Positions 9,200 through 15,939 of a stretch of DNA of 23,577 nucleotides are shown piece by piece (position 1 is the stretch's first letter; every line of letters begins with the position of its first letter). The stretch comes from a virus. Both the position numbers and the translations under genes were made by a program. Location of the stretch: the IMG/VR virus record IMGVR_UViG_3300010396_000102, positions 1-23,577 of that record. The stretch is one strand, 5' to 3'. Below the pieces are notes generated by a model. It did no database searches. It had not been told where the DNA came from and saw nothing but the letters and a program-made list of their open reading frames with translations.

Positions 9200-9843
9200 T
9201 CCGCTGCCTCCGCGGCTTTGGCCGCCAACGTGCGGAAGCCCTGGCTCAGTTCTTCCAGTGCGTGGCTCACCTCATCCCACACCAGCCGCCGGCACCCAGC
9301 CTCATCCAGCGTTGCAGCCAGCTGCGGCGCCAGCGTGTCGGCCAAGCGCTCCATCGCTCCCCGGAACGTCGTTGCGTGCTCAGCGAGGAAGGCTTCCACG
9401 TCAGCGCGAGGCAACAGCAACCCCAGTTCCTTCTGCAGCGTGATATGCGCCATGTGCGCGTCGGTCTCTGCCTTGTCGGCCAGCGCCTTGGCCTTGCGCG
9501 CGGAATCCGGCGTCTGGGGACGGCCCGCGCGTGCCGTTCTGGCGTCGGCGTCGTCGTCGCCATCCTCATCCTCGTCATCGATATCGGCGTCGAGGTCATT
9601 GGCGCCCTCCCCGCTCCCCACAAGCGAGCTACCACGCTCATCGGCATGCCGCTGAGCGACACCGGCATACACCGGGTCTGCGGTGCGAGCGTAGAGCTCC
9701 AGCGAGGCGGCCTTCAGGAATCCCTTGCCGCCAGCACCCACCACCACCCTGCCCTTCTTCCTCAGCTCGACCACGTAGGACGGCTTGCAGCCGATCAGCG
9801 TGGCCAGCTCTTTGCCAGTGATCGTCAGGTCTTCCTCAGCCAT
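9196..9843 (-). CDS. Terminase small subunit, Nu1-like
   Basis: A 215-residue DNA-recognition subunit. The N-terminal residues 5-50 (LTITGKELATLIGCKPSYVVELRKKG...KGFLKAASLELY) form a winged helix-turn-helix like Nu1, which binds cosB. Residues 83-100 are an extraordinary acidic run (almost all Asp/Glu), followed by a basic hinge (ARTARAGRP). A coiled helix (SARKAKALADKAETDAHMA) and a C-terminal helical domain (about 145-215) that should contact the large subunit complete it. The ATG at 9843 directly follows the repeat-rich candidate cos segment, the same place Nu1 occupies in lambda. The acidic linker is encoded by a GAC/GAT-rich tract near 9545-9600 prone to length change. The C-terminal half matches 'DUF1441/Nu1' style proteins. 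Confidence 0.85.
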   Translation of the reverse strand: MAEEDLTITGKELATLIGCKPSYVVELRKKGRVVVGAGGKGFLKAASLELYARTADPVYAGVAQRHADERGSSLVGSGEGANDLDADIDDEDEDGDDDADARTARAGRPQTPDSARKAKALADKAETDAHMAHITLQKELGLLLPRADVEAFLAEHATTFRGAMERLADTLAPQLAATLDEAGCRRLVWDEVSHALEELSQGFRTLAAKAAEAAE

Positions 9844-13007: not shown

Positions 13008-13538
13008 TCAGTCCTCTGCCCCAGACTTACCAGCCGCACGGCAGGCGTTTCGCTCCAAGCGGTAGCAGAGCCTGCGCACCTCTCGCGTCAGATCCTGGAT
13101 TCGATCTGCCTCGGGGACGGTCAGCTGCTGATCGGCCAAAGCGTCGATCCCCGCCCCGGCCAGCGCCCCAGTCAGTTTGTGCAACTCAAGTAATTTCGCT
13201 TGGATAGCGGCGAGCTCGTCGGGCCAACCGCCCTTAGGCGGCGGCGGGACGTAATCCACCATCAAGCTGTACTGACCTGCGAGCGAGCACACCCAGTCAG
13301 TGGCAATCTCCTGAGTACCGACGAACAGCAGCAAGTAGTCCGTCAGGATCTCAGCCATCTCCATCGAAACCGACTCACCATCGATGCCCCTGAGCTTCTT
13401 GCGTAACGTCTCAGCGGATATCGACTTGCCACGGCGCTTGCTGATGTGCGCGGCCGCATCCTGCAGCCCACCAGGCGCACGGGCAACCGCGTTGTTCAGC
13501 GCGTCCCGCCAATAGAGGTCTGAGCGCAGACAGGTCAT
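13008..13538 (-). CDS. Phage regulatory CII-family (CP76) protein
   Basis: A 176-residue regulator. The start ATG 13538 has GGGGGAAGC immediately upstream and overlaps the previous stop (ATGA). The N-terminal half reads DALNNAVARAPGGLQDAAAH...RRGKSISAETLRKKLRG...ESVSMEMAEILTDYL, the signature of the phage regulatory CII family (PF06892, Phage_CP76), a helix-turn-helix group replacing lambda CII in many proteobacterial phages. The C-terminal half is helical and dimer-like (AIQAKLLELHKLTGAL, REVRRLCYRLERNAC). Second position after cro in the leftward early operon equals cII in lambda, so it probably decides lysis versus lysogeny, perhaps by activating cI or int. Its DNA target is not identified. 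Confidence 0.82.
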   Translation of the reverse strand: MTCLRSDLYWRDALNNAVARAPGGLQDAAAHISKRRGKSISAETLRKKLRGIDGESVSMEMAEILTDYLLLFVGTQEIATDWVCSLAGQYSLMVDYVPPPPKGGWPDELAAIQAKLLELHKLTGALAGAGIDALADQQLTVPEADRIQDLTREVRRLCYRLERNACRAAGKSGAED

Positions 13539-13744
13539 GCTTCCCCCTGAAACACGCTGTCGATCATCGTGGGAATCCCGGCAACATCGCGGGCAGAATT
13601 CCACCCATGCCAGAGATCATCAGCTTCCCGCAGCGCATGCGGTTCACCGCGATCCGCGCATACGATGCGACAGCCGGCCTTGGCGGCGTTGTTGCCGTTC
13701 TTTTCGGGCCCGAGGATGGGGCACGGGCGCACCGTCACCTTCAT
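13535..13744 (-). CDS. Small hypothetical protein between cro and cII-like genes
   Basis: A 69-residue frame starting at ATG 13744, which overlaps the cro-like stop (ATGA), with GAGA seven bases upstream; its stop overlaps the next start (ATGA). The product begins MKVTVRPCPILGPEKNG, contains KAGCRIVCADRGEPHALREADDLWHGWN, and has three cysteines but no clear zinc-finger spacing. Double coupling and a place in the early operon make it a likely real gene. It is where lambda-type phages may carry cro-cII spacer genes. I do not recognise it. Confidence 0.6.
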   Translation of the reverse strand: MKVTVRPCPILGPEKNGNNAAKAGCRIVCADRGEPHALREADDLWHGWNSARDVAGIPTMIDSVFQGEA

Positions 13745-13977
13745 GCGATCTCTGCCGACCAGATGTCGGGCCGGATCGCAGACAGCGAGAGCGGCTCGCA
13801 TTCAAGCGAGCGGCTGATCTCGATAGACGCCAAATGAATCTTGCGCGCCAAAGTATGGCTGGGCTTCTTGTTCCTCCAGCCGGTTGCGCACTGCCACAGG
13901 TAACCCTCAGAACTGCCGGTCAGGGCAGCGAGGCGCCGCTTGCGTTCGGGATCCGAAATGAAGGTGAGTAGGTCCAT
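13741..13977 (-). CDS. Cro-like repressor (YdaS/Cro family HTH)
   Basis: A 78-residue protein starting MDLLTFISDPERKRRLAALTGSSE, followed by the characteristic YLWQCATGWRNKKPSHTLARKIHLAS. This is the YdaS/Cro helix-turn-helix pattern, in which one recognition helix sits around YLWQ...GWR. The end, LSAIRPDIW, is a common Cro tail. It is the first gene of the leftward early operon, divergent from the cI-like gene, and should compete for the same operators to push the phage toward lytic growth. ATG 13977 is only a few bases past the predicted promoter start and has no Shine-Dalgarno site, so the mRNA may be nearly leaderless. A longer frame to 14016 would cross the operator and is rejected. Confidence 0.8.
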   Translation of the reverse strand: MDLLTFISDPERKRRLAALTGSSEGYLWQCATGWRNKKPSHTLARKIHLASIEISRSLECEPLSLSAIRPDIWSAEIA

Positions 13978-13985
13978 AGGGCTAG

Positions 13986-14016
13986 TATTTAGCCGGGAGC
14001 TAAACCACTTTGTCAA
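13986..14016 (-). promoter_or_regulatory. Leftward early promoter (PR-like)
   Basis: A perfect TTGACA -35 (14016-14011, minus strand) is followed after 18-19 bases by a weak -10 (CTAAAT/TAAATA, about 13992-13986). Operator 1 covers the spacer and -10. It would drive cro and the whole replication-to-tail block. The -10 is poor, so the exact start is uncertain. Confidence 0.6.
13988..14004. promoter_or_regulatory. Operator 1 (TTTAGC-N5-GCTAAA, perfect)
   Basis: TTTAGC CGGGA GCTAAA is a perfect six-base inverted repeat with a five-base centre. It overlaps the cro promoter and so is a natural cI/Cro site. A second, overlapping dyad GGCTA-N5-TAGCC occupies 13980-13994. Three related sites occur at 14038, 15559 and 15586. 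Confidence 0.7.
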
Positions 14017-14039
14017 GCAGGCAGCGAAACACCCATGTT
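14010..14039 (+). promoter_or_regulatory. Repressor maintenance promoter (PRM-like)
   Basis: TTGTCA (14010-14015) and CATGTT (14034-14039), 18 bases apart, make a weak sigma-70 promoter toward cI. Its -35 overlaps the -35 of the opposite promoter almost base for base. Operator 2 covers its start region. Confidence 0.4.
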
Positions 14040-14054
14040 TAGCTACTAGCTACG
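14038..14054. promoter_or_regulatory. Operator 2 (TTTAGC-N5-GCTACG)
   Basis: TTTAGC TACTA GCTACG keeps the left half-site and four bases of the right half-site of operator 1. It lies 50 bases from operator 1 and just before the cI ATG (14063), so occupancy should block cI transcription. The sequence also contains TAGCTA...TAGCTA symmetry. Confidence 0.6.
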
Positions 14055-14062
14055 CTTCCAAC

Positions 14063-14617
14063 ATGGACGCCATAACTGCCCGACACCTCAACCTTCAAGC
14101 CCTGGTTGCAAGGCTCAAGCCCCAACTTGGAACGCAGAAGGCGATTGCCATCCACTTGGATATGGCCCCCTCATACCTGAATCAACTTCTTGGCGGCAAG
14201 AAGCTGGGTGATGAGGTCGCCCGCAAGATCGAGCGTGCAGCGTCACTTCCACACGGCTGGCTTGATCAACCAAGAAGCGATGAAGCCGGCGACACTGCTC
14301 GCCCCAAAGGTTCTCAGGATCTGCGAATCCAACCTGACATCATCGCCTCCGCGATCAGGCTAGTCCGGCTGACCTTCGCCAACCTCGGCATTGAAGACTT
14401 CAACAATGAAGATGACGGTACCCCGTTGGCTTACGCCTACGAGTACCTCTACCAACGAGGCGAGGCGACGGTGACCCCCGACAATCTGATTGATTTCAGC
14501 AAGGCGCTGGCACAGAAGCTCAGGGAGAAAGATGGAGAAGCCGAAGAAGGAGCCCCCAGCCCCGGGGACACTCGAAGCGTTGGCCGCAGTGATCGCGCAA
14601 CGCGTCGCAAGGCGTGA
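14063..14617 (+). CDS. CI-like prophage repressor without cleavage domain
   Basis: A 184-residue protein with an N-terminal helix-turn-helix at about residues 8-62 (LQALVARLKPQLGTQKAIAIHLDMAPSYLNQLLGGKKLGDEVARKIERA) and a C-terminal region of about 110 residues with helical segments (ASAIRLVRLTFANLG, DNLIDFSKALAQKLR). No S24/LexA-type Ser-Lys protease motif is seen, so RecA-driven self-cleavage is not expected. ATG 14063 is preceded by the operator pair and lacks a Shine-Dalgarno site. Divergence from the cro-like gene and the operators identify it as the lysogenic repressor. The charged tail (last 30 residues) overlaps the next gene in another frame. A longer frame to 13940 would run through both operators and is rejected. 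Confidence 0.82.
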   Translation: MDAITARHLNLQALVARLKPQLGTQKAIAIHLDMAPSYLNQLLGGKKLGDEVARKIERAASLPHGWLDQPRSDEAGDTARPKGSQDLRIQPDIIASAIRLVRLTFANLGIEDFNNEDDGTPLAYAYEYLYQRGEATVTPDNLIDFSKALAQKLREKDGEAEEGAPSPGDTRSVGRSDRATRRKA

Positions 14618-14903
14618 CGTAGCGAAACCTAAGCTCAGGCTTGTACCTGCACCTAAGCCATCCGTCATCGACAGCGTAACCAGGGATAGCATTCTCCGGC
14701 GCATTCGCTGGCTGAGAGATCTCTACAACCTGGGTTGCCTGATCGACCAAGCTACCTTCAATGAGCCTGGCATCGATAGCCTTGATGACGAGGCGTTGAT
14801 GCAACTACATCGGCAAATGGAAGCTGCGAGGGAATGCTGCATGGAGGGTGTACCGCTGGATGAAGCGGGATTTATCAAAGATGTATCGATCCGCGACTGC
14901 TGA
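14532..14903 (+). CDS. Hypothetical protein co-transcribed with the repressor
   Basis: A 123-residue protein whose ATG (14532) has a good GGGAGAAAG site and whose first 86 bases overlap the 3' end of the cI-like gene in another frame. It starts with a Lys/Pro-rich stretch and then forms helices (LEALAAVIAQRVARRDV, SILRRIRWLRDLYNLGCLID, LDDEALMQLHRQMEAARECC). It has no membrane or signal segment and no family I recognise. Expression from the repressor promoter would make it a lysogen-expressed gene, as rexA/rexB are in lambda. A role in immunity, exclusion of other phages or repressor modulation is therefore plausible but not shown. A terminator hairpin follows. Confidence 0.65.
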   Translation: MEKPKKEPPAPGTLEALAAVIAQRVARRDVAKPKLRLVPAPKPSVIDSVTRDSILRRIRWLRDLYNLGCLIDQATFNEPGIDSLDDEALMQLHRQMEAARECCMEGVPLDEAGFIKDVSIRDC

Positions 14904-14916
14904 CGACACAGTTCGC

Positions 14917-14941
14917 AGGTGGGCGCCAAACGCGCCCACTT
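14917..14941. terminator. Bidirectional terminator between convergent genes
   Basis: GTGGGCGC (14919-14926) and GCGCCCAC (14932-14939) form a perfect eight-base stem with loop CAAAC, extendable by a G-T and an A-T pair. It sits between the end of the cI operon (14903) and the stop of the oppositely oriented DUF4124 gene (14941). The T-tract is short on both sides, but the location is ideal. Confidence 0.65.
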
Positions 14942-15483
14942 CAGTTCGCCGGACTGGTTGCCGAGTGTTTTTCTCGCACTGCCCGTTCCCGCTCGCCCCG
15001 CTCAGTTGCGCATCGCTGGCGGGCCGCAGCCATCTGACTGTCCGCCGCAATTCGTTCAGCGCTTTGAGCTTGCTGCAGGCTCGCGATCTGCGAACGCAAT
15101 CCGGAAGCGTAGGTCGCACCCGCAAGATTGTTCTTCGCCGTCGCAAGCTGTCTGTTCAAGTTGGCGATCTGGCTTGAGACCTCTTGGTTCCGCGCATCGA
15201 CAGGCCCGTAGATGCGCCGCTGCTCGCCTGAAACACAGTTCCGCTCGGCAATGCCAGCATCGGCAAGCTCCGTCGTTTGATACACCGCCGCGCGGTTCGC
15301 GGCCTCACCAGCGCTCTCCGCCGATGCTCGATTGGAACGCAGCTTCATCGGCTCAGCCTTCGGAGAGCACGGCTCTTGGGAATAGACGGTCTCCCCTGCC
15401 CCTCCTTTGCACTTGTAGACCTGGCCTGCAGCCGACTGCGAGGCCACGACGGCCACAGCAGCAAAAAGCACCCTACTCAGCAT
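14941..15483 (-). CDS. Secreted DUF4124-domain protein in the immunity region
   Basis: A 180-residue protein with a signal peptide (MLSRVLFAAVAVVASQSAAG, cut near residue 20) and directly after it the DUF4124 motif QVYKCKGGAGETVYSQEPC, common in xanthomonad envelope proteins. The remainder is a long Ala/Gln/Arg helix (about 85-170, SSQIANLNRQLATAKNNL...) probably forming a coiled coil in the periplasm. ATG 15483 has an AGGGAGG site. It is the only minus-strand gene between the cI operon and the rightward operon, sits next to operators 3 and 4, and has its own terminator, so it could be expressed in lysogens. A lysogenic-conversion or superinfection-exclusion role is inference. It may have been picked up from a host gene. 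Confidence 0.75.
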   Translation of the reverse strand: MLSRVLFAAVAVVASQSAAGQVYKCKGGAGETVYSQEPCSPKAEPMKLRSNRASAESAGEAANRAAVYQTTELADAGIAERNCVSGEQRRIYGPVDARNQEVSSQIANLNRQLATAKNNLAGATYASGLRSQIASLQQAQSAERIAADSQMAAARQRCATERGERERAVREKHSATSPAN

Positions 15484-15558
15484 TGCCGCCTCCCTGGCTC
15501 ATTGCTCGCAAGCAAATTAGCCGTAGTTCCCCCCGCTTTTCCAGACCCTCCTGACAAA

Positions 15559-15575
15559 TTTAGCCACCAGCTATT
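15559..15575. promoter_or_regulatory. Operator 3 (TTTAGC-N5-GCTATT)
   Basis: TTTAGC CACCA GCTATT shares the full left half-site and GCTA of the right half-site with operators 1 and 2. It lies about 1.5 kb from the cI/cro pair in front of the rightward early operon, like OL in lambda. Confidence 0.6.
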
Positions 15576-15585
15576 GCATTGAGAA

Positions 15586-15602
15586 TTTAGCTGTGGGATA
15601 AA
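15586..15602. promoter_or_regulatory. Operator 4 (TTTAGC-N5-GATAAA)
   Basis: TTTAGC TGTGG GATAAA has one mismatch in the right half-site against the perfect operator 1. It starts 27 bases after operator 3, a spacing suited to side-by-side binding, and covers the -10 candidate of the rightward promoter. Confidence 0.58.
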
Positions 15603-15609
15603 TCGCCCT

Positions 15610-15646
15610 GCCGGCTCCGCAGCCGGCGGGCGACCGGCGAGTCGCC
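15610..15646 (+). promoter_or_regulatory. Two tandem hairpins in the rightward leader RNA
   Basis: GCCGGCT-CCGC-AGCCGGC (15610-15627) and GGCGAC-CGGCGA-GTCGCC (15629-15646) are perfect stems separated by one base, directly after the presumed transcription start. This matches the architecture of HK022 put sites, which make RNA polymerase resistant to terminators. An attenuator is the alternative. The antitermination reading is inference. Confidence 0.4.
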
Positions 15647-15714
15647 GCTGCCCGGCAACTCCCTTTGCCCCGGCACATGACCCGCCGGCGCCCTCCTTCT
15701 GACAGGAGCGCGCC

Positions 15715-15939
15715 ATGTCTCACCGCTACGCCGACCAAAGTCCCTGCGGGCTGCCGCCTCTGGCCGTGAAGGCCATGCTCGCGCTGGCAGCACGCGATCA
15801 CAGGACCGCCAGCACCCTCTGGGTTCGCAGCAAGGGCGAACACAGCCGCAACCAGCTCCGCCGCTCGCGGCGCATGGGTGTTGCCAGCCTCCGCCTGGAA
15901 GCCTGCTCACGCGATATGTCGGCGGAGGTGCGGGCATGA
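15715..15939 (+). CDS. Hypothetical basic protein, first gene of rightward early operon
   Basis: A 74-residue protein; ATG 15715 is preceded by AGGAGCGCGCC, a good ribosome-binding site. The sequence is helix-forming and basic (PPLAVKAMLALAARDHRTASTLW, RSRRMGVASLRLEACSRD) with no membrane segment. Its stop overlaps the next start as ATGA. As the first gene behind the operator-controlled promoter it is expected to be made very early after infection or induction, the place where lambda carries N. It lacks an obvious Arg-rich N motif, though the central RSKGEHSRNQLRRSRR patch could bind RNA. No family recognised. Confidence 0.65.
   Translation: MSHRYADQSPCGLPPLAVKAMLALAARDHRTASTLWVRSKGEHSRNQLRRSRRMGVASLRLEACSRDMSAEVRA

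What the first reader, a model, noticed from the sequence alone, without database searches (positions are those of the whole stretch)
13980..15602. Four TTTAGC-N5-GCTAAA operators in two distant pairs
Sites at 13988, 14038, 15559 and 15586 share TTTAGC and, in the other half, GCTA/GATAAA. Two lie between cro- and cI-like genes and two in front of the rightward operon. The spacing (50 and 27 bases within pairs, about 1.5 kb between pairs) suggests cooperative binding and looping as for lambda OR/OL. A repressor with this operator has not been recalled by me.
Basis: partly seen in the sequence, partly recalled or inferred. Interest (0 to 1): 0.75.

Follow-up and report, generated by a model that had tools for sequence, protein, structure and literature searches.

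The report
Lambda-like immunity operators in Stenotrophomonas phage
The repeated TTTAGC-N5-GCTAAA sequences are almost certainly the DNA switches bound by this phage's repressor: a three-site and a two-site cluster laid out almost exactly as in phage lambda, but with a DNA word that I could not find described anywhere and that repressors of Pseudomonas and Klebsiella phages appear to use as well.

Summary
All four sites are present and are the only matches with at most 2 mismatches in the 23.6-kb contig (none of 200 simulated sequences had 4). All four recur at matching positions in 26 of 27 relatives fetched by repressor protein alone; the last is a short contig ending inside site 4. Half-sites are nearly invariant while the N5 spacers drift. 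OR centres lie 67/42/17 bp from the cI start; in lambda, 66/42/19. Every imperfect half-site overlaps a predicted -35 or -10 hexamer.

The same operators flank repressors of Pseudomonas and Klebsiella phages. They follow the helix-turn-helix domain: 45 of 46 loci with it have sites, versus 2 of 61 sharing only the peptidase domain and 0 of 160 Arg-type relatives. The repressor lacks the S24 autocleavage domain; its nearest fold match, weak, is phage SPC32H Rep, which is released by an antirepressor.

Verdict: a lambda-type immunity switch with a previously unreported operator, a new member of a known kind. Looping and cooperativity remain untested.

The parts
13988..14004 (.). OR1 operator TTTAGC-CGGGA-GCTAAA; covers the -10 region of the leftward cro promoter PR
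   Evidence: perfect palindrome; present in all relatives fetched by protein (1 mismatch in L012, L020, L021)
14013..14029 (.).
   Evidence: half-site columns 1.82 bits, spacer 0.62; right half is a perfect GCTAAA in L034, L077, L090; left half overlaps the -35 TTGACA of PR
14038..14054 (.). OR3 operator TTTAGC-TACTA-GCTACG; covers the predicted -10 of the cI promoter PRM
15559..15575 (.). OL1 operator TTTAGC-CACCA-GCTATT; right half merges into the -35 of PL
15586..15602 (.). OL2 operator TTTAGC-TGTGG-GATAAA; right half is the predicted -10 of PL
   Evidence: right half is GCTAAA in L029 and L034, L090
13986..14016 (-). Predicted PR: -35 TTGACA (14016-14011), -10 GCTAAA/TAAATA (13993-13986)
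   Evidence: the TTGACA is conserved in all relatives listed
14051..14063 (+). Predicted PRM: -10 TACGCT (14051-14056), no good -35, start at or near the A of the cI ATG (14063); no Shine-Dalgarno, so cI probably leaderless
   Evidence: OR2 centre is 42 bp from the ATG, as in lambda
15574..15602 (+). Predicted PL: -35 TTGCAT (15574-15579), 17-bp spacer, -10 GATAAA (15597-15602)
   Evidence: the -35 is TTGACA in L029, L034, L090
14063..14617 (+). CI-like repressor, 184 aa, N-terminal HTH (recognition helix APSYLNQLL), C-terminal helical domain, no S24 peptidase
   Evidence: (phrog_12107, E 8e-40)
13741..13977 (-). Cro-like small HTH protein, 78 aa (helix SSEGYLWQC), nearly or fully leaderless
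   Evidence: assigned by position and by resemblance to relatives' Cro proteins; no family profile matches it
13008..13538 (-). CII-like regulator
   Evidence: phrog_101, E 1.9e-18
14532..14903 (+). Gene overlapping the cI end (S1 gp43 homologue), unknown function
   Evidence: (phrog_27415)
15603..15717 (+). Structured 5' leader of the PL transcript: three helices, the last pairing with the Shine-Dalgarno

Best explanation
The sites are the operators of the phage's lysogeny switch. A dimer of the CI-like protein (14063-14617), and most likely the Cro-like protein (13741-13977) as competitor, reads TTTAGC-N5-GCTAAA. In a lysogen the CI-like protein on OR1+OR2 shuts off leftward PR (cro, CII-like gene, replication) and on OL1+OL2 shuts off rightward PL, by covering their -35 and -10 boxes. 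From OR2, centred 42 bp upstream of the predicted start, it probably activates its own leaderless transcript from PRM, and at high level it shuts PRM from OR3. The repressor has no self-cleavage domain, so release probably needs an antirepressor or other partner rather than RecA cleavage. Shown here: sites, geometry, conservation, tracking of the site with the HTH domain. Inferred: binding, PRM activation, leaderless start, Cro competition, antirepressor. Looping between OR and OL is plausible but has no direct support.
For: Sites specific to these two intergenic regions. All four reader sites in 26 of 27 relatives fetched by repressor protein alone (the exception, L008, ends inside OL2), with OR1 and OR3 at -75 and -25 from the cI ATG; the ATG is also 75 bp from OR1 in relatives with only 34-44% identical repressors. 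Footprint over 32 distinct sequences: half-sites 1.91 bits, spacers 0.97, between sites 0.90. Middle OR2 site conserved. OR centres 67/42/17 bp from the cI start against 66/42/19 in lambda. Deviations fall on promoter hexamers. Same operators at cI/cro of Pseudomonas phages Ostro, AV001, AUS531phi, PotUPM1 and Klebsiella phages Chronis, KO-TP1, with few other hits in the whole records checked. Sites follow the HTH: 27/27 and 18/19 loci with it, 2/61 with the same S24 domain but another HTH, 0/160 Arg-type relatives. Repressor family phrog_12107; CII-like gene two genes after cro.
Against: No binding, transcription-start or expression data. The C-terminal domain is not lambda-CI-like, so cooperativity and looping may differ or be absent; OL spacing is 27 bp in most S1-like phages but 25 in L034 and L090. 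PRM lacks a recognisable -35 and its -10 (TACGCT) is weak. The PR -10 can be read with 17- or 19-bp spacing. The cI family is assigned by profile, not by test in this phage. L026, a distant relative with a similar helix (EQVQVSQWR), lacks sites.
Confidence: 0.88

Rival explanations
1. The sites are primarily Cro-type operators: the small protein 13741-13977 binds them and the 184-aa protein acts elsewhere or through protein contact.
For: The Cro-like recognition helix (GYLWQ) resembles that of CI (SYLNQ) and the pattern recurs in relatives (HLWQ/HLSQ, YLDQ/ALSQ).
Against: The cI-like gene belongs to a repressor family; site presence tracks its HTH across diverse C-terminal domains; related operators also occur in phages whose putative Cro helix looks different (e.g. 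L043, L053). Cro and CI are linked, so the two cannot be fully separated by sequence.
Confidence: 0.07
2. A variant of the best explanation: OR and OL work as independent local switches without OR-OL looping or lambda-style cooperativity; the repressor is a preformed oligomer as in SPC32H Rep or PaaR2.
For: No S24/CI oligomerisation domain; closest fold is SPC32H Rep, weakly; Rep binds DNA as a tetramer (PMC9638917). OR-OL distance varies from about 0.9 to 2.5 kb among relatives.
Against: OR and OL sites coexist in every record checked whole, and a preformed tetramer could itself bridge OR and OL.
Confidence: 0.45
3. Sites for other regulators: host LexA boxes, or KorA/KorB-type plasmid operators that happen to share the half-site.
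For: KorA OA is GTTTAGCTAAAC and KorB OB is TTTAGC(C/G)GCTAAA (PMC2680271).
Against: The spacer is 5, not 0 or 1; no KorA/KorB gene recognised in the window; no LexA-type box near the sites; three host genomes have no site within 1 mismatch outside the prophage.
Confidence: 0.02
4. Chance repeats, or sequence conserved for another reason such as promoters only.
For: Some half-sites double as promoter hexamers.
Against: None of 200 simulations reach 4 sites; left halves of OR3, OL1 and OL2 lie outside the predicted hexamers yet are invariant; spacers drift while half-sites do not; recurs in phages of three host genera.
Confidence: 0.01

Closest known systems
Phage lambda OR/OL with CI and Cro
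   Same: Divergent cI and cro, three OR sites at 23-25-bp steps, 17-bp operators with dyad symmetry, OR2 centre 42 bp from the cI start, OL at a second early promoter, CII-like gene downstream of cro
   Different: Operator sequence (lambda TATCACCGC type; no TTTAGC site within 2 mismatches in the region searched), two OL sites, OL only 1.5 kb away, repressor without S24 domain
PaaR2/YdaS switch of E. coli O157:H7 prophage CP-933P (PMC8630535)
   Same: OR and OL clusters, operators overlapping both promoters, leaderless repressor gene shown by 5' RACE, repressor and Cro analogue bind overlapping sites; palindromes with GTTTAG-type half-sites
   Different: Consensus GTTTAGTAA, four equally spaced palindromes plus pseudosymmetric OR1-3; part of a toxin-antitoxin operon
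RacR/YdaS of the Rac prophage (PMC5700373)
   Same: cI-like/cro-like layout, three repeats in the intergenic region, three EMSA complexes
   Different: Repeat GCCTAA/TTAGGC, not TTTAGC-N5-GCTAAA
Rep of Salmonella phage SPC32H (PDB 5d50, 5d4z)
   Same: Best fold match of the window repressor (E 6.6e-3); phage repressor released by antirepressor Ant
   Different: Weak match over the C-terminal part; Arg instead of Gln in the recognition helix; no TTTAGC sites in related Tyrion-like loci
KorA and KorB operators of plasmid RK2 (PMC2680271)
   Same: Half-sites TTTAGC/GCTAAA
   Different: No 5-bp spacer; different proteins and biology

Membership tests
Lambda-type immunity region (function and layout) | Divergent repressor and Cro genes with several operators between them | tested here: met
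Lambda-type immunity region (function and layout) | Three OR sites at regular spacing overlapping PR and PRM | tested here: met
   25-bp steps, middle site conserved; the promoters are predictions
Lambda-type immunity region (function and layout) | Second operator cluster (OL) at a promoter for the other early operon | tested here: met
Lambda-type immunity region (function and layout) | Leaderless repressor transcript activated from OR2 | tested here: inconclusive
   No Shine-Dalgarno and OR2 centre at 42 bp; start site not measured
Lambda-type immunity region (function and layout) | Cooperative binding and OR-OL looping | not testable with these tools
   needs protein
Lambda-type immunity region (function and layout) | CI and Cro bind the same sites | not testable with these tools
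   recognition helices are alike
S24 (LexA/lambda CI) self-cleaving repressors | Peptidase_S24 domain | tested here: not met
   no Pfam hit in the window protein; found in relatives Ostro, AUS531phi, Chronis
SPC32H Rep/Ant-type repressors | HTH plus Rep-type C-terminal domain | tested here: inconclusive
   Foldseek best hit 5d50, E 6.6e-3, model pLDDT 74, pTM 0.38; sequence match confined to the HTH half
SPC32H Rep/Ant-type repressors | Dedicated antirepressor | not tested
   no candidate identified in the window
PaaR2/YdaS family | GTTTAGTAA palindromes and YdaS-family Cro | tested here: not met
   sites are TTTAGC-N5-GCTAAA; window Cro has no YdaS Pfam hit, relatives only below cutoff
KorA/KorB operators | TTTAGC and GCTAAA overlapping or 1 bp apart | tested here: not met
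   5-bp spacer in every site
LexA operators | Xanthomonadales-type TTAG/TACTA box (consensus from my own knowledge) | tested here: not met
   only one 3-mismatch hit, inside cI at 14440

The most novel reading that the evidence does not exclude
TTTAGC-N5-GCTAAA is a shared immunity code: repressors with a Gln-type recognition helix in Stenotrophomonas, Pseudomonas and Klebsiella phages keep the same operator and much of the OR geometry while exchanging cleavable (S24) and non-cleavable C-terminal domains, so operator recognition and mode of induction evolve as separate modules and phages of different genera could be cross-immune.
Probability: 0.35. Interest if true: 0.6.

Novelty: new member of a known kind. 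Interest (0 to 1): 0.42.

Why it matters
It gives a complete, testable operator map for a large group of uncharacterised temperate phages of Stenotrophomonas and relatives, and shows a lambda-like OR geometry kept by a repressor that lacks lambda's self-cleavage domain. The site follows the DNA-binding domain and not the C-terminal domain, which separates immunity specificity from induction mode. The Gln/Arg difference in the recognition helix is a specific, testable proposal for what sets the specificity. The sites also offer a simple marker for finding immunity regions in raw phage sequence.

Tried and rejected
LexA-box reading: no box near the sites. KorA/KorB reading: half-site shared, spacing wrong. 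Third OL site at 25-27 bp on either side of OL1/OL2: none seen by eye. The TTAGC at 15517: part of a likely leftward promoter for the DUF4124 gene (GATAAT in relatives), not an operator. Known operators: no match in the regions of D3, N15, HK022 and lambda searched; F116 only an unrelated 2-mismatch hit outside cI-cro. N15 has TTATAGC-TG-GCTATAA, a related core with a 2-bp spacer. Literature searches for the sequence and for Pseudomonas CI operators found no report; the phage S1 paper (10.1128/AEM.01709-08) is not held. Papers followed up that proved unrelated: LfsT (PMC9769523), Fc02 (PMC9936078, primer sequence only); a search by PDB codes 7NKV/8C3K/8C3L gave nothing useful. A genus-wide genome search failed on handle rules and was not pursued. 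The Gln-versus-Arg comparison is partly circular for loci L029-L096, which were found by the operator pattern; only protein-fetched loci are counted. A first version of the S24 control looked only near the annotated first Met and was replaced by whole-locus scans.

Full report
What the record is. The window is a 23,577-bp virus record, a fragment of a temperate phage closely related to Stenotrophomonas phage S1: repressor and Cro-like protein are each about 85% identical to those of S1. Close relatives also lie in Stenotrophomonas genomes. Leftward genes run from cro (13977) through a CII-like gene and a primase-type replication gene toward structural genes; the rightward side holds cI, a small overlapping gene and, from 15715, a second operon.

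The observation. The four sites are real and specific. TTTAGC occurs four times on the + strand and GCTAAA once, and all are inside these sites. With at most 2 mismatches the whole record has exactly these four; simulations give 0.21 on average and never four. At 3 mismatches the excess is modest.

Conservation. I fetched relatives with the repressor protein only. Among the 27 S1-like loci, OR1 and OR3 are always 75 and 25 bp before the cI ATG, and OL1/OL2 lie about 1.48-1.52 kb after it; the only missing site is OL2 in L008, where the contig ends inside the site. Over 32 distinct sequences, including repressors only 34-44% identical to the window's, OR half-site columns carry 1.91 bits, spacers 0.97 and the sequence between sites 0.90. 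The asymmetries are conserved too: GCTACG in OR3 (with rare GCTACT), GCTATT in OL1, GATAAA in OL2.

The fifth site. Midway between OR1 and OR3 lies TCAAGC-N5-GCGAAA (14013-14029). It is degenerate in the window, but in L034, L077 and L090 its right half is a perfect GCTAAA, and its half-sites are nearly as conserved as the others (1.82 bits against 0.62 in its spacer). So OR has three sites at 25-bp steps.

Why the sites are imperfect. Each deviation sits on a predicted promoter element: OR2 left half on the TTGACA -35 of PR; OR3 right half on the TACGCT -10 of PRM; OL1 right half on the TTGCAT -35 of PL; OL2 right half, GATAAA, is the -10 of PL, 17 bp away. OR1, the perfect palindrome, covers the -10 of PR. 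In L029, L034 and L090, whose OL2 right half is GCTAAA, the PL -35 is TTGACA. These promoters are sequence predictions, not measured starts.

Comparison with lambda geometry. OR centres lie 67, 42 and 17 bp from the cI start here and 66, 42 and 19 in lambda. In lambda the cI transcript from PRM starts at the AUG and CI at OR2 activates it (established knowledge; both points are also stated in PMC8630535). The window's cI has no Shine-Dalgarno and a -10 seven bases before the ATG, so the same arrangement is inferred.

Which protein. Named phages with related repressors have the same operators at the same place: Pseudomonas Ostro, AV001, AUS531phi, PotUPM1 and Klebsiella Chronis, KO-TP1, with few other hits in the complete records checked. 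Distant relatives Tyrion and EPP-1, whose recognition helices carry Arg instead of Gln at the position of Gln41, have none. Scanning protein-fetched loci: S1-like 27 of 27, Ostro-like HTH 18 of 19 (L277 has an altered N-terminus), same S24 domain but another HTH 2 of 61 (one 1-mismatch hit shared by two loci, away from the cI start), Arg-type 0 of 160. The operator therefore follows the HTH domain. Because the Arg-type loci come from two families only, Gln41 as the determinant is a hypothesis. A pattern scan shows the operator beside several further CI families, but those loci were chosen by the pattern.

The repressor. 184 residues, phrog_12107 transcriptional repressor, no S24 domain, whereas Ostro, AUS531phi and Chronis repressors have one. 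The AlphaFold model is moderate (pLDDT 74, pTM 0.38); the best fold match is Rep of phage SPC32H, but it is not strongly significant, and the sequence match is only to its HTH half. Induction by an antirepressor is inferred from this and from the missing protease domain.

Known or new. Layout and logic are those of lambda and of PaaR2/YdaS in CP-933P (PMC8630535). I found no published description of TTTAGC-N5-GCTAAA as a phage operator; the S1 paper could not be read, so it may mention it. The half-site is shared with KorA and KorB operators, with different spacing.

Outside the finding. The PL transcript begins with a leader of about 115-138 nt with three helices, the last pairing with the Shine-Dalgarno of the first gene. 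Seven pairs have changes on both sides, 98.8% of cells pair, no shuffle reached the observed covariation score, and sliding the partners destroys it. Rfam has no match. It may be an antitermination or translation control element.

Noticed in passing
window 15603-15717 (+): Strongly structured, covarying 5' leader of the predicted PL transcript (three helices; the third sequesters the Shine-Dalgarno of the 15715 gene); no Rfam match. Possible antitermination (put-like) or translational control RNA.
   Followed up: partly
window 14941-15540 (-): DUF4124 gene between cI and OL on the opposite strand, with its own likely promoter (GATAAT -10 in relatives, GCTAAT here); looks like an accessory gene that could be expressed in the lysogen.
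   Followed up: no
L032, L033, L045, L065, L067: A related S24-type CI family with two sites 55 bp apart beyond the cI end, one of them of the GATAAA type, and another site at the cI start: operators on both sides of cI.
   Followed up: partly
L043, L053, L066, L082, L095: CI genes with an SGTGKPR-type HTH region flanked by two pairs of extended sites such as ATTAGCCTAAGGCTAAA, about 34 and 58 bp apart within pairs; close to the RacR repeat GCCTAA/TTAGGC.
   Followed up: no
phage N15 (L349) 9730-9745: Annotated CB operator contains TTATAGC-TG-GCTATAA, the same TAGC/GCTA core with a 2-bp spacer.
   Followed up: no
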